Source: Pochonia chlamydosporia 170 (Eukaryota; Ascomycota; Sordariomycetes; Hypocreales; Clavicipitaceae). Taken from it: DNA of 64,000 nt. The stretch spans positions 1,054,001 through 1,118,000 of the forward strand of contig NC_035795.1 of NCBI RefSeq assembly GCF_001653235.2. The letters are read 5' to 3'. The notes under the pieces were generated by a model. The model ran no database searches. It saw nothing but the letters and a program-made list of their open reading frames with translations, and had not been told where the DNA came from. A program made the position numbers and the translations under genes. Shown here piece after piece: positions 23,758-35,289 of this stretch (its first letter is position 1; every line of letters starts with the position of its first letter).

Positions 23758-24813
23758 ATGGCGACTCAACAGAATGGCGTTGCTGCCAACGGAGCTGCTT
23801 CCAAGAGACATGAGGAGTACCAGTACCTGGATTTGATTCGTGAGATTCTTGATGAGGGAGAAGAGAGACCTGATCGGTATGTGTAAACGGCCAGCGGTGA
23901 GGGCATTCACGAGCATGAACCCCCACTAACATGATGCAGCACAGGAACCGGCACAATCAGCATCTTTGCTCCTCGACCACTCAAATTCTCACTCAACAGG
24001 GACGGCACGCCGATTGTTCCCCTCCTCACCACTAAGCGCGTGTTCCTGCGGGCTGTGATTGCCGAGCTACTCTGGTTCATCGAAGGCAACACCTCATCCA
24101 AGGCCCTTAGCGACGTGGGCGTCAAAATCTGGGACGGCAACGGCTCCCGCGAGTTCCTCGACAACTTGGGCCTCACGCACCGCGAAGAAGGCGACCTGGG
24201 CCCTGTATACGGATTCCAATGGCGTCACTTTGGAGCGGAATACGTCGACGCAAAGACAGGTTACGCAGGACAAGGCGTCGACCAGCTCGCTGATGTCATT
24301 GACAAGCTCAAGAACAAACCATATGATCGGAGGATCATCATGAGTGCATGGAACGCCCGTGACTTGCACCTCATGGCCCTCCCGCCGTGTCATGTCTTTG
24401 CACAGTTTTACGTCTCGTACCCCAGCCGTGGGAGGCGCAACGGCAAACCCGCGGTGAACGGCACAAATGGCAGCGCGGAAAAGGGCCATCTACACTGCCA
24501 GTTGTACCAACGGTCCTGCGACATGGGTCTCGGCGTGCCATTCAACATTGCTAGCTACGCGCTGCTCACACACATGATGGCACATGTGTGCGATTTAGTC
24601 CCAGGGAGTTTGACGCATGTCATGGGCGATGCGCACGTCTACGCTGATCATGAAGATGCCCTGAATATACAGCTGGAAAGAGAACCGCGTGACTTCCCTG
24701 AGATAGAAATCGCGCGGGAGAAGGGAGGCAGCATTGATGGATGGAAGGTGGAAGATTTCGTGATCAAGGGGTATGATCCGCACAAGACGATCGCCATGAA
24801 GATGGCTGTATAG
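23758..24813 (+). CDS. CDC21: Thymidylate synthase
   Basis: Two exons: 23758-23876 and 23940-24813, 330 residues. It converts dUMP to dTMP with methylene-tetrahydrofolate as carbon donor and reductant. The catalytic nucleophile is Cys190 in [13 protein letters not shown]. The phosphate- and dUMP-binding segments [28 protein letters not shown] and [10 protein letters not shown] are intact, as are WFIEGNTS and [14 protein letters not shown]. Compared with yeast and bacterial enzymes there is a ~20-residue hydrophilic insert after QFYVSYPS (residues ~200-220, rich in Gly, Asn, Lys and Arg), as seen in other filamentous fungi. The C-terminal MKMAV is the usual closing tail. Confidence 0.97.
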
Positions 24814-26072
24814 AGGATTGAAGACGGAGTATTTAAACGGAATGGTTTTTTGTTATGTGTGGGGAGTTGCGAGTAAATGAGCGAGCTTCCCCGTTTAGCC
24901 TCCGCCGTGCAACGTGGTATAGGAGGCATATCTAACGCAGTTAATGATGAAGGATTGGGACGTACTTTGGTTTGGGCTGGTAGATCAATTCGCTTAGCGC
25001 ATTGCATATTGTATTGGGATAGATGAAATAGGAAGTTCAACCTTTCACACTTGTCTTGCCGCAACTGCCGAACCAGAGAGCGGCAATATTGTCTCGTCTT
25101 GAACGTGCACTAGGTTTAGACGATGATCCCGAAGATTCATGACAGCCTGAATTGCTTTGTTGTTGAGTAACATACATATGTCATCACATGAGGGCATAGC
25201 TCGGACTTACTCCGTCTCAGGCACCGGGCAAATCCTCATCCGCCAATCACCAACGGGAAGAATCCCCCGTAGATCTAGGGATTCAAGGTCAAGTTTCTTA
25301 CTCATCGTCTGATAGTCGGGTTATGCAAACTCTTTATTCCAGCTATGTTACTACATGTCAGTGTGGACCATCTCCGTCCGTCCCGTACTCACCTCGGACA
25401 AGCCGGTCAAACCGGTGACCAGATGCTATATTTGAACCAGGGTGCAGCTGGCCCGACGATCTGACGATCTTGTTCGGCTGCAGCAGCGGTGCTTTCAGAA
25501 CAGCTGCAATGACGGCGAGACGGCACATGTAGGCACGGATTGATCGACATTCGAACAAGTGTCCTTCCTGTTCTGTCGGCTTTGATATCGTATGTTCTTT
25601 GCGTGCTGGCAGGCGGGACGTATCAGTGATCGGCGTCAATTGCTGATTGCGAAATGTGGTGCAGACAGCGATCGCAGGTCGTAAATCGTGTCGGCGTCAC
25701 GCACAGCGCTGGACGATAAAAATACCCAGGCGTCATATTCATGTTCATGTTGATGTTCAGCTTCAGCGTCATGTTCGCATGAAAATATACCAAACATAGT
25801 GAGTAATCCAAGGATGCAGCCATGTTATGCACAGAGAGATGGGCGGCATGCCCCCAATCAGATCGGTGGGTGTGGCCGCATGGCATTTAATGGTGTGGGA
25901 ATTCGGAGAGTCAAGCCCCGGTTGGTGTGGCTGACTTCTATGGTGCACCAGACCTTAGCTCACACCCACATATCGGGCAAAATCAATTAGCCGCAGAAAC
26001 CCTCGGAGGCTCTTCAATGTTAGGGGCTCTTAGAGGCCGGGCCAAAAAAAATAATACAGGCGGGAATTAAAC
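24814..26072. other. Intergenic, no gene recognised
   Basis: About 1.3 kb of moderate GC without a supported gene. Frames at 25358-25639 and 25623-25886 (minus) are short and featureless. Confidence 0.45.
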
Positions 26073-26760
26073 CTACAATCTAGGCCTAGCCATAGCCCAC
26101 TCTACTATTGAGCTACTATACCTCAATTTTAACTGCTTAACTACGTTGGGTATTTTTATACTCCTATATATAAGTAGTAATTTTAATCTATATACACCTT
26201 TATTAGAAACTAATTTAATATTATATACTATAAATTTAAAGCTAACGTAGATGCATAGCGAGTGAGTCACTCGCACTCTTACCAAAAATATCATTTCTAT
26301 ATCCCTATAAAAACCACCAAAAATAGATAAAAAGCGTCCTAATTCTAATATAGTATTTCTAACTATTATATTAGCCTAATTTTAGATTTTTATTTATTGG
26401 GCTAACTAGTTATATAGAAGTTTTGAAAAGTCTAATTTACACTGTGAGAAGTCTAGTTCCTCTATATAATTATATATAACCTTAACCCTAGAACTATAGT
26501 AGCTTCTAACTATTTAGTAAATAGTAACATATTAAAATAATAGCTATTTTTACCTATTTTTGGTGGTTTTTACAGGGATATAGAAATAATATTTTTGGTG
26601 AGAGTGCGAGTGACTCACTCGCTATGTTGTCTCACTCGCTATGCATCTACGTTAGTTATATATTATATCTCTGTATACCATAATACTACATATGCTGTAA
26701 TATTACTTGTTCTAATAGTATATAAATATTTTACCTACATACCCTTGCATATGCCGCACC
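26073..26760. other. AT-rich island (possibly RIP-degraded)
   Basis: Base composition changes abruptly to TA-rich, with many TATATA and CTATA runs, between about 26080 and 26750. The flanking DNA is of normal composition. In filamentous ascomycetes such islands are usually transposon remains mutated by RIP (C to T). No intact transposase is visible. Confidence 0.6.
26242..26655. mobile_element. MITE-like element with ~100-bp imperfect terminal inverted repeats
   Basis: The left arm starts CTAACGTAGATGCATAGCGA (26242) and the right arm ends with its exact reverse complement at 26655. The outermost 25 bp match perfectly. Further in, the arms match for another ~70 bp with four differences, all transitions. 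The right arm carries an extra 17-bp copy of the ACAACATAGCGAGTGAG motif. Each arm contains the near-palindrome GCGAGTGAGTCACTCGC. The ~200-bp centre is AT-rich with no coding frame. No clear target-site duplication was found. This fits a non-autonomous DNA transposon or a foldback element. Confidence 0.7.
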
Positions 26761-26909
26761 GACAACGAAACGACCATCCTCCCTCTATTCATCCCGGGGA
26801 TTCATGCTGCTACAGCCAATGCAGTATGCACCCAAGCCTAACCCACGAGTCCGACAGGCGACTTATTCAGGTTGGTATCTCATCATCTATCTACCCTGCC
26901 GAGCGCGGA

Positions 26910-27071
26910 TTACGGCGGAGGCTGCGAAAGCCACACGGTATCAGGACCCTCTGCAGGCTCACCATCGGCATCTGAGTGATGTTTGTCGGCCCAGATCATT
27001 ATGTTATCCAACTTACGGCATTTATGCTGCGTGCTGAAATCAGGATAAAGGCCATACTGTTTAACCCAAAA
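26910..27071 (-). pseudogene. Stranded C-terminal coding remnant of the UstYa-like gene
   Basis: Directly after the TAA at 27074-27072 the same frame stays open for 53 codons, to TAA 26912-26910. It reads FWVKQYGLYPDFSTQHKC and then RKLDNMIWADKHH. This resembles the C-terminus of UstYa/DUF3328 proteins, where a LYPDF-STQHKCR-type block follows the second HxxHC motif. It therefore looks like former coding sequence cut off by a nonsense change, or read by an unusual splice or readthrough. Confidence 0.6.
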
Positions 27072-27973
27072 TTATGTAACAATGCCGGCGTCACCATGGC
27101 AAATAATGGCCTGCCGTAACATATCAATGCAGTGGTCGACGTGCTTCCGAAGGATGCCCTCGGAATCAGTAAACGCCTCTGGCTTGTTCTCTGCACGATT
27201 ATAGTAGTCCCGATACGTGAATTGACGAACTAAATTCTGTCGACTGAAAATCAGTTTCTGCACAAGGTGACGACTAGTTAACGCTGCCAGCGGAATACTT
27301 ACGAGACAGTGCAGCTGGTGGAATACTTCTATTCCAACAAAGTACATGCCGCCAGGTTCTTGGTCTTCTGTGTATTTGACGGCAGAGCGAGATTTTCCAA
27401 TTCGATCCAGCACATCGCCAGTGACTATTGAATTATTCTCTATCGTTTGGTAATTAGCCCTCTGCTACTAGGCAACAAACACAAAAACGGACATACTATG
27501 TGTGAGAAATGTCCAGGCTTCATCCATGTCCTTGTTCGGTGTTCCTTTGTAAATGCTTTTATGATCAAGGGCACCTTGGAACATGACGTGTTCATATTCG
27601 ATAGCACCAGAACCAGGTTCCAGAAGAGGGGCTACTGACATTAGCTGCCCGGTCTGTCTTTCAAATTTTAGGCGCACTACTTACAATACAGGGACGTCAT
27701 GATAGCACAGTCTTGCTCAGAACACAAAGTATTTTTATTATATCCGGAGCGTGTAAGTGTCACCAGTGTGGCAACCAGAAGTAGAGTGTTGATAATGGTG
27801 AGCCCGAGAAATCCGACGAGTCTCCATGGTCTGGAGGCCGGTCGAGGGTCTAGGAAGCCGTGGAGCAATGTCTCCTCTGCGTGATTATTTGGAAGTGACT
27901 CCGAGCTCTTAGACGACCGTGAATCTGAGTACACACGTCCGTACTCGGTGGACTCATCCAATTTGGCACTCAT
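27072..27973 (-). CDS. UstYa-like (DUF3328) protein, truncated by premature stop
   Basis: Four exons: 27973-27685, 27634-27497, 27439-27303 and 27236-27072, 242 residues to the first stop. The order is: a cytosolic acidic N-terminus; one transmembrane helix near residues 50-70 (VGFLGLTIINTLLLVATLV); then EYEHVMFQGALDH and the two hallmark motifs HQLHC and HVDHC (in LRKHVDHCIDMLRQAIICHGD). UstYa-family proteins are membrane-anchored oxidases or cyclases that modify ribosomal peptides (ustiloxin, phomopsin, cyclochlorotine), and some act in other pathways. The two motifs are thought to bind metal, and both are intact. A TAA at 27074-27072 stops the protein before a conserved C-terminal segment still present in frame. 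The gene diverges from the repeat-peptide gene at 28809. Activity is uncertain because of the truncation. Confidence 0.85.
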
Positions 27974-28808
27974 TTCTAAACGACACGAGTTTGGAACGAG
28001 GGAGGGCTGCGTCGGAATACAAAGGTAGAGGGAGCAGAGAATGTTTACAAGATCAAGGGATCAATAGAAAGAAGTCCAGTGCTTTGCAAAACGTAAGAGC
28101 TTTCACCAGTCTGAATAATTGGTCTTAGCGGCTTGTCCGGAGGTTTCCCTTTGCGGAACACGGGGTGGGAGATTCTGTATCAGCAGAAAATTGCGATTAT
28201 GAGTAACTTGTGTATACAGCATGACCGTTTGATACAGCGCCGAGGGGTATCAAGGTAATTAGGAGTGAAATCCAACATCTGCTGATATTGAAGCCGATCT
28301 GCTCCTCTTCAAGACAATATATGCAAGAACAGCAAAGCTTTCATACGACGTAACCAATCATCCAGGATTTTGTTCCGGCCATGCTGATGATTTTCATGGC
28401 AGGCATGTTTCCCCTCCAATGTTATACATTGAAATGGAAGGTAGTTGGTTTTCATTCCGTAACCGCCTGCATTGTATTCATCACGTCCAACATTTGGCAC
28501 CCTGTGCAGTACACGCCATTGGTTCTTCCGATGATAAGACATGCCGGAAACTCGGAGCGAGTCTCCATTAAGACTTACTCGCATGAAGGCACGTTTGTCA
28601 ATTTGGTTGCATGTGACAAATGTAAAGGGCAAGATAATTATATCCCCGTCAACTGAAGAGGAGACGCAGAAAAGCTTAAGATGCCTCCCATCTTGCCCTC
28701 TAGGCTTGCTACGCTTTCGACCTTCCTCATCAACCTAGCACTCTATACCAGACCAAAATCTCCCACAACATTTTTATATTGTCAATTGAGCAGTTATTAC
28801 CAATCGAA
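27974..28808. promoter_or_regulatory. Divergent interval between the UstYa-like gene and the repeat-peptide gene
   Basis: The 835 bp hold the upstream regions of both genes, which point away from each other. I see no other supported gene and no specific operator that can be named. A shared control region for a precursor and its modifying enzyme is an inference. Confidence 0.4.
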
Positions 28809-29075
28809 ATGCATTTTGTTAAGATCTCGATCGCCTTTCTTGGCATATTTACCTCGGCCACTACCGCTCTGGCGATCAATGGGAGAGATGGGAAGGTAAA
28901 GTACGACAAGTATGAACCTGTCTTAGTAAGGGATGCCAAAGAGAAGTACAACAAATATGAGCCACTTGAGGCTCGGGATGGCAAGCAAAAGTACGCGAAA
29001 TATGAACCGCTTGTGGCTCGGGATGGCAAGCAAAAGTACGCGAAATATGAGCCACTTGAGGCTCGGGATGGCTGA
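28809..29075 (+). CDS. Candidate RiPP precursor: secreted peptide with four 15-residue Tyr repeats
   Basis: Single exon, 88 residues. MHFVKISIAFLGIFTSATTALA (1-22) is a clear signal peptide with an ALA cleavage site. After the short INGR spacer come exactly four 15-residue units (27-41, 42-56, 57-71, 72-86), each ending in Arg and each starting Asp-Gly or Asp-Ala. The consensus is DGKQKYAKYEPLEAR; variants are VKYDKYEPVLVR, EKYNKYEPLEAR and QKYAKYEPLVAR. The chain ends in a leftover DG. Each unit has two Tyr. No Cys is present, and there is no Kex2 Lys-Arg pair, so processing would need monobasic cleavage after Arg. Signal peptide plus repeated Tyr cores next to a UstYa-like gene is the layout of dikaritin-type precursors. 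The start is the ATG directly before the signal peptide. It could instead be a repetitive secreted effector. It is not an alpha-pheromone precursor, as there is no Trp-Cys core. Confidence 0.72.
   Translation: MHFVKISIAFLGIFTSATTALAINGRDGKVKYDKYEPVLVRDAKEKYNKYEPLEARDGKQKYAKYEPLVARDGKQKYAKYEPLEARDG
28887..29066 (+). repeat. Four tandem 45-bp coding repeats
   Basis: Four in-frame 45-bp units with no spacer. The last two units are nearly identical at DNA level; the first is the most diverged. This gradient suggests recent unit duplication at the 3' side. Confidence 0.9.
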
Positions 29076-29801
29076 TGCGCTCGGAAACCAAAGAGGCAGG
29101 ATATAGATTGGAGGTTGGTTGGATTCGAAGCAAAGATACTTTCCACACTGTAGCTCTCTTCATGTTAGTCGGTCATTTACAGTATAGCTAGGGCTTAAGA
29201 TGGAACAGACAAGGGACAACAAATCTACTCTTTTGATGTCAAGTAAAGAAAGCCAACACGTTTATTAATTCCGGCATGCACATACTGTACTGTACGCGCC
29301 ATATTTGCACCTTTAGGCAGGCCATAGATGCGCCTTCAAAGGGAATAAATGAAGTAGCCAACAAACGGAGCTCAACCGGTAGTATGACGTCGCAACCCGG
29401 CACAGAAACCAGGACAAGTTCATGTCATCAATTGATGTCGCTTCAGAAGCGACACAACAGCCCCACAGCGGCTCGCACAGCGGCTCGGCCGTTACCGCTT
29501 CGGGAACATGGAATATCCAGACTGGTCGTCTCGTCACAATCTTTTCACGTACATATTGTACGGCCAGTGCATGTTCCGTAGCGCTTGTTGCCATTCCCGT
29601 GCGGTGCGGGGTCCTAGATGTATCTGTAGGGGTCAATTCAAAAGGCTAAGCTTATTACAATATACCAGACTGCAATACTCTCTTCCTGAGGGTTCCTTGG
29701 TCTGCCTAGCCTAAGCCCTCTGTTCTTCATATAGTACATGTCTTTATTCCCAACTTGACGGTTTTAATCTAGTAACCCCCTTTGTCTAGGGTTGATCGGC
29801 A
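29076..29801. other. Intergenic, no gene recognised
   Basis: 3' flank of the repeat-peptide gene and 5' flank of the acetyltransferase. Frames at 29276-29650 lack protein features. Confidence 0.45.
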
Positions 29802-30563
29802 ATGACTTCCTTGAGAATTGAGGGTTGTACCGTTGACGATGCGATTGCCTTGGGTCGCAATAATGGCGCTGCGTTCTGGGAGCAGCCCATGTGGAGGATG
29901 ATGTGGCCAGAAGAAAAGACACAAGAGTTTATGATTGAACAACTACAGAAGCGTATGCCAATGCGACTACTAATAGATCGCGATGCGATGCGACATGAGA
30001 AGGCTGTGGATATAGAGACAGGCTCCATTGTTGGATACGCAAGATGGGCTTTCCCCAAGGGTGTCCTCCTTGAGCAAGAATGGCTATCTGCGCAGGTACC
30101 AGATGTGGATGGTAACCAGATGAAGGCATTTGAAGAGCTTAATCAGTCTTCCTGGTGGGAGGCCAGAGAAGATTTGGAGCCTTTAGATCGCGAGAACGAA
30201 GCAATAAGTGACCGTATACTTGCGACGAGACCTTATATCAGTAAGTTATCATTATACAGTAGATCAGGCCGATGAATATTGTTGGCTAATAGTGTACGAA
30301 CAGAGCTGGACTATTTAGCTGTTCACCCCCAGCATCAGGGAAAGGGCATCGCGACAGCACTTGTGCGTAGCGGGCTGTTGCAGCTGAAGAAGCTAGGCAT
30401 ACCTATTTTTGTCTTTGCATGGAAGTCTGCTCGAGGTATCTACTTGAAGCTGGGGTTTAAGGAAGTTGACCGCCTTATTCAAGACGATACCTCATATGGT
30501 GGCACAGGTGAATACGGCGTATATTTTATGATTTACGAATTCCCTGCAACAATGGCTAAATAA
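29802..30563 (+). CDS. GNAT family N-acetyltransferase
   Basis: Two exons: 29802-30240 and 30304-30563 (intron GTAAGT...CAG), 232 residues. The C-terminal exon carries the acetyl-CoA binding motif A, LDYLAVHPQHQGKGIATALV, with the Q-x-x-G-x-G/A core (HQGKGIA). After it comes motif B, FVFAWKSARGIYLKLGFKEV. The N-terminal half (TVDDAIALGRNNGAAFWEQPMWRMMWPEEKT, then SIVGYARWAFPKG) is the pattern common in fungal small-molecule GNATs. The acceptor amine is unknown. It lies on the same strand as the repeat peptide, 0.7 kb downstream, so a tailoring role there is possible but unproven. Confidence 0.88.
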
Positions 30564-31056
30564 ACTACAGAGATAAGTCTACTAGAGACGCAAGTTCGTG
30601 TAAAGAAGCCTTCTATTTTGAACCAGTAGCTGTTCGTAGTTTGCAAGTCACATCCGCCCTCCCAGGTGGACTTACATTCCCCAAAGACGAGCAGCTTTGT
30701 TGGAGAAGCCTAGGTATATGTAATGTATTGGCATCAAATAGCATTGAGCAACGCTTTGCTCGATATTCAGACTGCATATACTCACCCCCTCTTAAGTCTG
30801 AAGGGTATAAGCACGTCAGCTGTCATATATGTAGGCAGTAGCCGAGCAAACCGACCCGCCGTCAGCAGATTTGTTCACCTTTTCCCACATTCACATTGAG
30901 GGCTGTTGCATCCTAGCCCGCGTTGATTCAATCCACAATATTCTCAAGCCGGTTTCACACAGTAGCAAAAGTAAAGGTATTAATAGATGAACGCGCCTTC
31001 TACTGACTTCCTTATTCATTAACTTTAAATTAGCCCACAACCCCCAGTTGCCTATT
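30564..31056. other. Intergenic
   Basis: No supported gene. It holds the 3' flank of the acetyltransferase and the upstream region of the next gene. Confidence 0.45.
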
Positions 31057-32673
31057 ATGGATCATTCATCACGAGATGAAGAATGGGATGCTCTCCCGTA
31101 TCAGCCATTGGGAGAAGGACCAACCCCAGCCGCTCATGGTCATCGCAAGACGAGCCTATTTCTCTGTGCGTTTCGGATAGGCAACAAAATTTACCATCGT
31201 GGTTTCTGGATCAGTGCCTTCCTGTTGTTCATCGCATTGGTTGTCTTTATAATCGATGGCTCTGGTCACCTCCGCTCCTCTAGTTTCCGTTCGGCAAACT
31301 CGGCTGAGATACCTGCACAAAGCGCGGATCCCGGTGTGAAAATGCCAGGATCTTGCACAACATGGCCGGTCGCTGGCGACTACTCCTACAACGAATCTGC
31401 CGCGAATCGTCAAAGCAAGCTGCGCCTCGATAGCTATGCACCAGCGGGTGGATGGGAAAAACCTCAGGGCACTCGAGTGGTCGCCGTCGTCTTCTACGGT
31501 CGCCGCAGGACCGTCGATATACTAGACTGCTATCTGCAGCAGAACCTCGCTCGCAACGGTGGCTATGTTGACCAAGTTCAGTTCTTATTACATACTACCG
31601 ACCAAGCCGATATCTCATACATCAGCCAGCTTGCTTCACAAACTGCCGAATATCGTGTCCTGGGCCCTGGAAATTGTAAAGGAAACGATTACGGCTGCAT
31701 GTGGGAGTCACTAGTCGAGGATAATACCATCTATGTTAAAATCGATGATGATGTGGTACGTCATTTATCGCCAATTATACAGATATTGTGTGCTCACCAG
31801 CAATTTCAGGTGTATATTCACCAAGATGCCATACCACAGCTTGTGAACACTCGTTTAAAGGAGCGATTCCCTCTCGCGATATCAGCGAATCTCGTCAATG
31901 CCCCTGTGACAGGCCTGGAACATTATCATTTTGGGGCCATCCACCCGTTTTTAGTTGACCCAGCTGATGGGCCATCATACGAGGCTTCCGAGAGTTGGCG
32001 ACCATCCGAAAAGCCCTTCTACCCCGAGGATAAGATGCCTCATTATCAAGACCACAACGCTACTCTGTTTCCGCACCCACCATATCAAGGTCATACCTGG
32101 TTACTGATCCAAGGCGACAACAGCTACAACCTACGCAAGACACCCATAGGTATCAACTTTGGGCGCAACGCTGGGCTTCATGACCTGTACATGACGGCGT
32201 GGGAGTCTTGGGCCTGTGGCGCGCAGCAACAGTACTCGCTGCTGCGAAATATCGAGCTGAATCAAGTTTCAAACTACTTCTTTGGACGGCCCATCAGATA
32301 TGCCACTGACACGTCCATGTCACCTTTGAAGAGCCCGGAAACAGACACACAGCCAGGGGCGGAGCAGCTCTTCGACACCCAGTACAAGCGAAGCAACATT
32401 ATTTTCATTGCAATGTGGGGTCACGATATCAAGCTTACGCTGCCTCTTGGAGAGGATGACGAGCTAGACATGACTCTCTATAAACCTAGGAAGCTGAAGC
32501 GACCGTTTGTTGTTGACACACGCAGCGTTATTGCCCATTTTAGCTTTGGTACACAGGCTGATGGGATGCGCTCGACTGATTTGCTCGATCGGTGGCGGGC
32601 CTTGGCCAACGAACTCGTTTGCAAACCAAATAACCTGAAGGCGCCGTGGGACAGACGGTGTCCTGGATTCTAG
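31057..32673 (+). CDS. Type II membrane protein, glycosyltransferase-like (DDD motif)
   Basis: Two exons: 31057-31755 and 31810-32673, 520 residues. The 54-bp intron (GTACGT...TTTCAG) keeps frame if retained, but removing it joins YVKIDDDV directly to VYIHQDAIPQLV, which looks right. A single transmembrane helix at ~50-66 (FWISAFLLFIALVVFII) follows a ~49-residue cytosolic N-terminus, so the catalytic part would face the Golgi or ER lumen. The segment VVAVVFYGRRRTVDILDCYL and the acid triplet D230-D232 in KIDDDVVYI resemble the nucleotide-sugar-binding part of GT-A fold transferases. I recognise it as a type common in fungi but cannot name a GT family. Substrate unknown. Confidence 0.75.
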   Translation: MDHSSRDEEWDALPYQPLGEGPTPAAHGHRKTSLFLCAFRIGNKIYHRGFWISAFLLFIALVVFIIDGSGHLRSSSFRSANSAEIPAQSADPGVKMPGSCTTWPVAGDYSYNESAANRQSKLRLDSYAPAGGWEKPQGTRVVAVVFYGRRRTVDILDCYLQQNLARNGGYVDQVQFLLHTTDQADISYISQLASQTAEYRVLGPGNCKGNDYGCMWESLVEDNTIYVKIDDDVVRHLSPIIQILCAHQQFQVYIHQDAIPQLVNTRLKERFPLAISANLVNAPVTGLEHYHFGAIHPFLVDPADGPSYEASESWRPSEKPFYPEDKMPHYQDHNATLFPHPPYQGHTWLLIQGDNSYNLRKTPIGINFGRNAGLHDLYMTAWESWACGAQQQYSLLRNIELNQVSNYFFGRPIRYATDTSMSPLKSPETDTQPGAEQLFDTQYKRSNIIFIAMWGHDIKLTLPLGEDDELDMTLYKPRKLKRPFVVDTRSVIAHFSFGTQADGMRSTDLLDRWRALANELVCKPNNLKAPWDRRCPGF

Positions 32674-34647
32674 TTGACCCTGGTCTGGCCAAAGATTGCA
32701 AAACTTGTGTTCTATGAATACAAAATGGCCTGGATTAGAATAATCTAGGTGGTATGTTGAGCAAGACAATATTTTGGTAGTCTAAAAAAGGTTAAAGATA
32801 TTTTTATAAAGGAATTTAAACTTTTTGTTTTTATATAGCCTTTTTTTACTTACTAATATTTTATTACTCTTAATAAGCTAAACTCTGGTTAATTTAAATT
32901 GTAATTTACTTATTAGTTTTTCTTTAATAAAAAAGAAACTATATATTTTTAAATATAAATAAAATCTTTCTTTTCTTAAGGTGTATTTATATATTTTATA
33001 TAATTAGAAAAGAGATACTAGAGAGAATTAATATTATATATAGCTACATAGCTAGCTCTTTAGCCTTAGTAGATGAGGTTAGGCATCTTATTTTTACCCG
33101 ATTTATTGGTGCAAGCCAAGGCATCACCGTAGACCTCCATTCCTTACTATTTTTGTGCCTAATATACTATCAGGGATCAATTAATAGTAAAGCTGTACTA
33201 AAGCTTGTTTGCAGGAACTGGACACACTTATCCACACCATCACTCATCACTCACCACCACTCCACGAATCAAAGTATCTACTCAGCCATAAGCAAAGCAC
33301 AATTCATCCGACCAGACCGACCTCAGCAAGGGGCCCCCGTAATTCAGTGTTGCAGATAGAGCCCGTACCTGTCAGCGATCGACACCCACCAGCCCCATCA
33401 AGATGAGACGCTCTAAACATTCCCGTCCGTCCAATCACCACGCATGATAGTCATGGTCAATTGCCGTTCTTTGTCCTGCGGCTGTTGTACCCAATTCTTT
33501 AACTGGGCTGCCGAGTTATGTTATCGGGTGTTTATTGCGTTGTTTTTTAAGAAAATCTCGCTTCCACACATGGCGAAACATTGTGGATGGAGAAAAACAT
33601 GGTTTGCGGTTCGTCTGTTGTTAGTCAGGTACTGACTTATTCATGGTGTCTCCATCAATCGCACAAGACAAAATGCATCGTGATTGCCGACATAGTCGAG
33701 CGCATGTGAAAATTCAGAGTACCAGAAAAGGTCATCGTGATTGTCGGCATGTAGCATTCTCAGCACCGCGTTGCATCGCCGGCGCACCAAGGTAACGACA
33801 GTCAGGCCTGCATACGTGTACATATGTAGGCATACTTGAGCACATGCAGGGTTGCACGATCGACAGGGCTGGCTATTGCTCCTTGTCGTCAGCATCCAAC
33901 GACGATCCATTTACCATGCCAGTTCCTAGTAATACTCTTCCGAATGTGCAGCCCCGTACATTACAGCACCAGACGATGTTGAAAATTCATCGCCATGACC
34001 ATCTTCACAATCTTCACCGCAGGTCCACGTAGCAGAAACAGCTCAAGGCGCAAAGCAGAAAAGCCACCCAAGAGCGCGAATTCTTGTAACAGCATCAGAG
34101 CCCATTTTCCCCGTAGAACCCAAAATAAATATCTTCATGTATGAAAGCAAAAGCCATACGCACCATCTTTTATGCACGCTATCCACGTTCCCACCGACGC
34201 CACCGTCCCTGTACTCCATCGACATGCATCCTCGCCGTGGTGTGAACAGGGAGTGTATTCTTCAACCTCGCCAGCAAGCCGGCTTTTCTTGCCAACGGAC
34301 TTTATGTACAAGGTGTAAAGTACCGCTGGTATCAATGTTTGCTGGCTGCCGACTCACCTGCCTACGGTGGCCACATCAGGAAGTGATGTGTTGCACACGA
34401 CTTACACAATGGAGCCATATTATCCACGCCCCCTTGGCCATTACTCTTCTGCCTTCTTTTAAATATATCTGTTCTCCTTCCCTTTTCTCTCATCCTAGAT
34501 AAACTATATTCCTTTCCTTTCTCTATAAACCATCGGTATCCGTAGGTTCCTTTTTCCTTTTCTTTCTTTCGTCCCTTTCAGTACAGAACTTTGACAGTTC
34601 TCTCCCCTGGTGCAAGTCATCAGGATATACCACAAAAAAAACACAAA
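32674..34647. other. Intergenic with AT-rich core (about 32770-33060)
   Basis: The left third is strongly AT-rich (TTTATA and ATATAT runs), resembling the island at 26.1-26.7 kb, and may be RIP-degraded repeat. The rest has normal composition and no supported gene. Confidence 0.5.
34523..34530 (+). promoter_or_regulatory. TATA-like element upstream of the secreted-protein gene
   Basis: CTATAAAC lies about 120 bp before the ATG at 34648, in a C/T-rich leader. Position and sequence are plausible for a TATA box of a regulated gene. Confidence 0.35.
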
Positions 34648-35289
34648 ATGAAGTTCTCTCTCCTCTTTCTGGCCGCCTTGCCAGCCACTCTCGCTTCTCA
34701 ACTGGCGTATACTCCTCCCGCGGACCTCGTCGAGAAAGCCAAGCACGGCAAGCACCACTGCGTCCTGCCTTCAGAGTACCACGTCAGGGACTTTACCGCC
34801 ACGACGAACAACACCGGACACAGCCTGACCTCGTACAAGTTTACGTTTCTCAACAAGGCGACCAATTCGTCGACGGCATGTGAGTACGGGCCTTTGTCTA
34901 AGCCTGTGGTTTCTGCCAACAGCGGCGGCTTGCCGAGATATGCTTGCACGAACAAGGATGTGAGCTTTGTCTGGCAGAACAGGCATAAGAAGTTGTCCAT
35001 GATTCAGAAGGTGTGCCCTGATGCAAAGGGGTAAGTTTTATGTTTTCTTGTCTTGCATCGTCGTGGCGTGACGGCCGTTGCTTTATTTTGTATACTGACA
35101 TTCGTTAGACACTCCGAGTATGAGGCCTCAGGGACGACTCATATTCCTCTGTCTTGCGGCCTCAACACTTGCCAGACCAATTCTACCGACCATAGGGGCA
35201 TCTTCACCAGCATCAACCCTATTAAGCATGGCCGTGTGATTCGACACAACAGACGCGGCGTGGCTTGGTCCTTCGACCTGGCCAACTAA
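34648..35289 (+). CDS. Small secreted Cys-containing protein, possibly AA1-like
   Basis: Two exons: 34648-35030 and 35109-35289, 187 residues. MKFSLLFLAALPATLAS is a clear signal peptide. The mature part has six Cys, two in each of the blocks HHCVLPSEYHVRDFTATT...ACEY, RYACTNKDVSFVW...VCPDAKG and PLSCGLNTCQT, with several N-glycosylation sites (NNTG, NATN style, NSTD). The beta-rich pattern with early FTA and central Cys recalls Alternaria allergen 1-like (AA1-like) secreted proteins, but similarity is weak by eye. The tail NRRGVAWSFDLAN is short and basic/aromatic. Such proteins are often effectors or wall-associated. Function not assigned. Confidence 0.8.

What the first reader, a model, noticed from the sequence alone, without database searches (positions are those of the whole stretch)
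28809..29075. Candidate new RiPP precursor: signal peptide plus four exact 15-residue tyrosine repeats
The peptide has a signal sequence and exactly four units of consensus DGKQKYAKYEPLEAR, each starting at Asp and ending at Arg, with two Tyr per unit. A UstYa-like gene lies divergent next door. In ustiloxin, phomopsin, asperipin and epichloecyclin loci, a signal-bearing precursor with repeated Tyr-containing cores sits next to UstYa-type oxidases. Here the usual Lys-Arg Kex2 site is missing; regular single Arg residues (26, 41, 56, 71, 86) could be the cleavage points. The core sequence does not match any dikaritin core I recall. The final peptide, if any, would be new.
Basis: partly seen in the sequence, partly recalled or inferred. 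Interest (0 to 1): 0.88.

Follow-up and report, generated by a model that had tools for sequence, protein, structure and literature searches.

The report
Fungal peptide precursor with tyrosine repeats
A fungus that infects nematode eggs carries an apparently unannotated gene for a secreted peptide made of four similar tyrosine-rich units next to a peptide-modifying enzyme gene; it looks like a precursor of a modified peptide, but with unusual cutting sites and a partner enzyme gene that appears broken in this strain.

Summary
The ORF is real: 88 aa at 28809-29075 (+), a signal-like N-terminus, four ungapped 15-residue units (DxKxKYxKYEPxxxR), then DG. The units are not identical; units 3 and 4 differ by one residue. 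The genome matches Pochonia chlamydosporia 170. Divergently, 835 bases away, lies a UstYa/DUF3328 gene identical to public VFPPC_09228. No precursor relative was found; it is single-copy here. Best reading: precursor of a UstYa-modified, dikaritin-like RiPP whose units are joined by monobasic Arg-Asp junctions instead of dibasic Kex2 sites. Four other repeat precursors that I recognised near UstYa genes in this genome all have KR sites. A published KEP survey required dibasic sites (PMC7329392) and would miss it. Against a working pathway: an in-frame stop in the UstYa gene removes a C-terminal segment present in 15 of 15 aligned relatives, and no usual dikaritin tailoring gene was recognised among the 15 neighbouring ORFs or exons scanned. 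Cutting, crosslinking and expression are not shown. A new variant of a known kind, perhaps impaired in this strain.

The parts
28809..29075 (+). Repeat precursor ORF, 88 aa: signal-like residues 1-22, INGR, four 15-residue units, terminal DG
   Evidence: no Pfam family; single copy in own genome
28809..28874 (+). Putative signal peptide, residues 1-22 ending ALA
   Evidence: sequence, judged by eye; 9 of 12 hydrophobic residues in the best early stretch
28887..28931 (+). Unit 1 DGKVKYDKYEPVLVR
28932..28976 (+). Unit 2 DAKEKYNKYEPLEAR
28977..29021 (+). Unit 3 DGKQKYAKYEPLVAR
29022..29066 (+). Unit 4 DGKQKYAKYEPLEAR, followed by the DG tail
27072..27973 (-). UstYa/DUF3328 gene, exons 27973-27685, 27631-27497, 27439-27303, 27236-27072; 241 aa to an in-frame TAA (27074-27072); HQLHC and HVDHC motifs
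   Evidence: PF11807 E 3.1e-40 with the draft model; final model identical to VFPPC_09228; the draft used an intron-1 acceptor 3 bases earlier and gave 242 aa
26913..27071 (-). Open frame after the stop, 53 codons then a second stop: remains of the conserved DFSTQHKCR segment
   Evidence: taken apart, 43 of 52 residues identical to the tail of the Tolypocladium relative P0003

Best explanation
The ORF encodes a secreted multi-unit precursor of a UstYa-modified (dikaritin-like) RiPP. Proposed course: the signal peptide takes it into the ER; a UstYa-type copper oxidase in the secretory lumen modifies the KYxKYEP core, most simply at one or both Tyr; a Golgi protease (Kex2 acting at monobasic Arg, or a yapsin-like aspartyl protease) cuts at the five Arg-Asp junctions and releases four 15-residue units; a carboxypeptidase may trim the Arg. 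Shown: ORF, array, junction pattern, neighbouring UstYa gene, its truncation. Inferred: signal function, cutting, crosslinking, pairing of the two genes. Since the UstYa gene is truncated, this strain most likely makes no crosslinked product with that gene's enzyme, unless the truncation is tolerated, is an assembly error, or another UstYa enzyme stands in.
For: Array far beyond chance. A PF11807 gene (138.8 bits) is the neighbour, 835 bases between start codons. If gene order were random, the chance of lying next to a UstYa gene is at most about 2x48/14,204 = 0.7% (48 PF11807 matches, exons counted apart; 14,204 genes, PMC5773674 passages). In a published survey the DUF3328 count peaks at the position next to the precursor gene, and Tyr is in 65.6% of repeats with DUF3328 nearby against 38.2% without (PMC7329392 passages). 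By eye, five of 27 UstYa loci here hold a precursor-like ORF, this one included. Five of five Arg are followed by Asp; sites cut by four yeast Kex2 enzymes were enriched for acidic residues and for Ala, Val, Leu at P1' and P2' (PMC2515848 passages): Asp at P1' fits, Gly at P2' (four of five) is not among the named residues. Products apparently cut after single Arg were reported for three mushroom KEPs made in Pichia pastoris (PMC9769878 passage). Single-Arg junctions also occur in L013 (LDAR^HHQ, IDVR^HHQ) and L029 (MKVR^ADT). The DUF3328 enzyme CctR is a dicopper enzyme whose large domain is placed in the organelle lumen (PMC12435403 passages).
Against: No dibasic site. No homologue in two searches, so no evidence that precursor and UstYa travel together. 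The UstYa gene is truncated. No tyrosinase, methyltransferase, transporter of the usual kind or peptidase recognised among the 15 neighbouring ORFs or exons scanned. Coding evidence within the array is modest: 10 of 20 variable columns are third positions; dS could be computed for only 3 of 6 unit pairs (dN below dS in those); one antisense frame is also open and nearly as repetitive, 35 of 73 against 38 of 74 positions identical at shift 15. No expression data.
Confidence: 0.6

Rival explanations
1. A decaying relic: once a working precursor-UstYa pair, now without function in this strain, because the oxidase gene has a nonsense codon. (This overlaps with the best explanation: it concerns the present state, not the origin, so the confidences do not add up to 1.)
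For: In-frame stop before a segment kept in 15 of 15 aligned relatives; the frame after it still matches a relative at 43 of 52 residues, so the change looks recent. In the AlphaFold2 model of the intact Tolypocladium relative the corresponding segment holds most of a confident strand-strand-strand-helix end.
Against: The precursor frame is intact and nine positions are kept in all four units; both HXXHC motifs lie before the stop; an assembly error at the stop codon is not excluded.
Confidence: 0.35
2. A linear secreted repeat peptide precursor (pheromone- or effector-like) whose units are cut out but not crosslinked; the UstYa neighbour is coincidental or inactive.
For: Only 22% of KEP genes in a published survey had a DUF3328 gene nearby (PMC7329392 passages); the UstYa gene is truncated here.
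Against: Divergent adjacency to a UstYa gene and two Tyr per unit.
Confidence: 0.22
3. An intact secreted Lys/Tyr-rich repeat protein, for example a wall protein, never cut into units.
For: No dibasic site; 12 Lys, 8 Tyr and 13 acidic residues in the 66 residues after the putative signal peptide.
Against: Very small and regular; Arg falls only at unit junctions, always before Asp.
Confidence: 0.15
4. A non-coding or chance repeat.
For: No public protein record turned up in the search; one antisense frame is also open.
Against: ATG, signal-like start, in-frame 45-base units, score far beyond shuffles.
Confidence: 0.05

Closest known systems
Dikaritins (ustiloxin, phomopsin, asperipin-2a)
   Same: Signal-bearing precursor with tandem Tyr-containing units next to a UstYa/DUF3328 gene
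   Different: No dibasic Kex2 sites; 15-residue units with KYxKYEP; no tyrosinase or methyltransferase recognised among the neighbours scanned (asperipin-2a is reported with a single DUF3328 gene); UstYa truncated
KEX2-processed repeat proteins (KEPs; Le Marquer 2019, Umemura 2020)
   Same: Small, signal-like start, at least 3 tandem repeats of at least 8 residues
   Different: Fails the KR/KK/RK/RR criterion; junctions are single Arg followed by Asp
Other UstYa-adjacent repeat ORFs in the same genome (L012, L013, L029, L030)
   Same: Repeat ORFs within 5 kb of UstYa matches in this genome
   Different: All four have KR sites; different unit sequences

Membership tests
Dikaritin RiPP | UstYa/DUF3328 gene beside the precursor | tested here: met
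   PF11807 E 3.1e-40, 835 bases between start codons; the gene is truncated
Dikaritin RiPP | Two HXXHC motifs in the DUF3328 protein (named as a marker in PMC12048977 passages) | tested here: met
   HQLHC and HVDHC upstream of the stop
Dikaritin RiPP | Complete DUF3328 protein | tested here: not met
   Stop before the C-terminal segment present in 15 of 15 aligned relatives (P0003-P0017, of 120 listed)
Dikaritin RiPP | N-terminal signal peptide | tested here: inconclusive
   Hydrophobic stretch and ALA by eye; no predictor available
Dikaritin RiPP | Repeated core with an aromatic residue to crosslink | tested here: met
   4 units, 2 Tyr each
Dikaritin RiPP | Dibasic Kex2 sites between cores | tested here: not met
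   0 KR/RR/RK/KK
Dikaritin RiPP | Tyrosinase, methyltransferase, transporter or peptidase genes in the cluster (not present in every known cluster) | tested here: inconclusive
Dikaritin RiPP | Crosslinked peptide product | not testable with these tools
   needs mass spectrometry
KEP (Umemura definition) | At least 3 tandem repeats of at least 8 aa between KR, KK, RK or RR | tested here: not met
   repeat part met, dibasic part not (definition in PMC7329392)

The most novel reading that the evidence does not exclude
A class of UstYa-linked RiPP precursors processed at monobasic Arg-Asp junctions, hidden from surveys that demand dibasic sites, giving 15-residue KYxKYEP peptides with Tyr crosslinks.
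Probability: 0.35. Interest if true: 0.65.

Novelty: new variant of a known kind. Interest (0 to 1): 0.45.

Why it matters
Fungal KEP/RiPP mining has filtered on dibasic Kex2 sites. In one published survey 69,264 proteins were called as having tandem repeats and 7,878 of them passed the filter of at least 3 repeats between dibasic sites (PMC7329392 passage). A UstYa-adjacent precursor with only monobasic Arg-Asp junctions would show that such a filter drops real precursors, and it gives a simple, testable substitute rule: tandem Tyr units joined by Arg-Asp next to a DUF3328 gene.

Tried and rejected
Homology of the precursor: native 88-aa query, 0 of 9 candidates at E<=1; 178-aa query with the native units repeated, to reach longer precursors, 0 of 20 candidates at E<=10. 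Both searches see only proteins that share exact five-residue words with the query. Paralogues in the same genome: only itself at E<=10. Literature: six motif strings (YEPLEAR, KYAKYEP, KYDKYEP, KYEPLE, YNKYEP, KYEPL) gave 0 papers; VFPPC_09228 gave 0; the paper on Trichoderma RiPPs gave no lead in the passages seen; the listings gave nothing on this locus. Solved structures: 0 relatives of the UstYa alignment at E<=1, and no fold match at E<=0.001 for the model of P0003. Exact-copy repeats rejected. KR sites lost one by one are unlikely, because all four units end in [AV]R. RNA families in 24000-32000: only a tRNA. Not achieved: control regions away from UstYa genes, so an enrichment of repeat ORFs near UstYa genes is not measured here; the case rests on published statistics and the chance estimate.

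Dropped rows: one search listed 30 repeat-bearing ORFs with a score of 40 or more in the window and 26 loci; I kept 5 as precursor-like and dropped 25 by eye (other frames of the same arrays, a tetratricopeptide-like protein, low-complexity or antisense frames). One dropped row is borderline: L026 9475-9753, signal-like with weak Tyr-bearing DGP repeats and one RR.

Full report
Identity. The window lies in a 44.2 Mb, 49-contig genome. Its UstYa gene model gives exactly the public protein VFPPC_09228 of Pochonia chlamydosporia 170, whose listed contig length of 3,224,313 equals that of our contig C6 as given. The published assembly of strain 170 has 49 scaffolds and 14,204 genes (PMC5773674, passages). 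The fungus infects nematode eggs (abstract start).

The precursor. 28809-29075 (+) encodes 88 residues: MHFVKISIAFLGIFTSATTALA, INGR, then DGKVKYDKYEPVLVR, DAKEKYNKYEPLEAR, DGKQKYAKYEPLVAR, DGKQKYAKYEPLEAR, then DG. The invariant positions read DxKxKYxKYEPxxxR. Self-alignment at shift 15 scores 197 against a maximum of 41 in 2000 shuffles. The units are similar, not identical. dN is 0.03-0.25; dS could be computed in 3 of 6 pairs (0.24-0.77), where it exceeds dN. Ten of 20 variable columns are third positions, and one antisense frame is also open and nearly as repetitive, so coding evidence from the repeats alone is modest. It has no Pfam family at E<=0.01, no paralogue and no homologue in the two protein searches.

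Junctions. There is no dibasic site. All five Arg are followed by Asp, then Gly (four) or Ala (one). Passages of PMC2515848 report that sites cut by yeast Kex2 enzymes are enriched for acidic residues and for Ala, Val and Leu at P1' and P2'; Asp at P1' fits, Gly at P2' is not named there. A passage of PMC9769878 reports products apparently cut after single Arg for three mushroom KEPs expressed in Pichia pastoris and says that Kex2 may do this; other passages state that dikaritin precursors have dibasic sites. A passage of PMC7329392 defines KEPs by KR, KK, RK or RR, so this ORF would have been left out. Section 10 of PMC6339444 says that almost all UstYa-linked Aspergillus precursors of an earlier survey have Kex2 sites, so exceptions may already be known.

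Comparison within the genome. PF11807 has 48 matches (exon by exon, and the tool calls its counts lower bounds), which I group by eye into 27 loci including this one. The other 26 were fetched as 9,901-base stretches and scanned, together with the window, for repeat-bearing ATG-started ORFs of 45-400 aa (30 rows). By eye I judge five of the 27 loci precursor-like: L012 (AQSPDILYNNQAGWGKR, six units), L029 (xxTSADESYLPMKR-type), L013 (HHQGAK with KR), L030 (YTDTDKEVA, two copies) and the window. The first four, in the order L012, L029, L013, L030, have 11, 4, 2 and 2 dibasic sites, the window none. L013 and L029 also hold single-Arg junctions. One row that I dropped, L026 9475-9753, is borderline. 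No control regions away from UstYa genes could be fetched, so enrichment near UstYa genes is not measured here.

The UstYa gene. Exons 27973-27685, 27631-27497, 27439-27303 and 27236-27072 (-); 241 aa with both HXXHC motifs. An in-frame TAA at 27074-27072 ends it, and the public protein ends at the same point. All 15 relatives aligned (P0003-P0017, of 120 listed) go on with a segment that carries DFSTxHKCR; taken apart, the frame after the stop matches the Tolypocladium relative at 43 of 52 residues. In a chosen set of 34 relatives the Phe of that segment is invariant and its His, Cys and Arg nearly so. The AlphaFold2 model of the Tolypocladium relative (best model mean pLDDT 83.0, the other four 69.6-74.6) has strands 241-245, 249-253, 257-261 and helix 263-272 in this region, so the truncated protein would lose most of this end. 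The DUF3328 enzyme CctR is a dicopper dimer in which C-terminal disulfides matter (PMC12435403, passages); that the Cys lost here takes part in one is my inference. The enzyme is therefore probably impaired, unless the stop is an assembly error.

Neighbourhood. Pfam recognises a proteasome subunit, thymidylate synthase, a GNAT acetyltransferase exon downstream of the precursor, a lipase, a P-type ATPase, a NACHT-WD40 protein, a PhyH protein about 15 kb away, a Sac/5-phosphatase, PRP39 and dynamin; a 541-aa ORF has no match. Apart from the UstYa gene there is no clear biosynthetic cluster; a role for the GNAT or PhyH gene is conceivable but unsupported. Not every ORF of the window was scanned.

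Judgement. A UstYa-type RiPP precursor variant with monobasic junctions is the best reading (0.6). That a whole class processed at Arg-Asp exists stands at 0.35. A recent loss of the oxidase in this strain is a serious companion possibility; the confidences of the rivals overlap for that reason.

Noticed in passing
L012:4413-4907 (-): 164-aa signal-bearing ORF with six AQSPDILYNNQAGWGKR units between two UstYa matches; looks like a canonical KR-type precursor.
   Followed up: partly
L029:6459-6641 (+): Array of TSADESYLPMKR-type units near UstYa exons; a signal-like stretch (MKLSVVLSTFIACVAA) lies upstream in another frame, and one junction reads KVR instead of KR.
   Followed up: partly
L013:6983-7315 (+): HHQGAK / KAKGKAKAKAG repeat ORF with two KR sites plus single-Arg junctions DAR^HHQ and DVR^HHQ near a UstYa gene.
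   Followed up: no
L030:8819-8977 (+): 52-aa signal-bearing ORF with two YTDTDKEVA units and KR sites, 3.6 kb from a UstYa match.
   Followed up: no
L026:9475-9753 (+): Signal-like 92-aa ORF with weak Tyr-bearing DGP repeats (DGPPYALQ, DGPSYNPEG) and one RR, about 4 kb from a UstYa match; borderline, not counted.
   Followed up: no
window 27072-27074 (-): In-frame stop in the UstYa gene VFPPC_09228; the frame after it is still conserved.
   Followed up: yes
window 26052-26122 (-): tRNA match, 32.6 bits over the gathering score of 29.
   Followed up: no
window 29802-30563 (+): Probable two-exon gene with a GNAT domain in its second exon, downstream of the precursor.
   Followed up: no
window 34591-35034 (+): ORF of 147 aa with a weak AltA1 (Alternaria allergen) match below the cut-off.
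   Followed up: no
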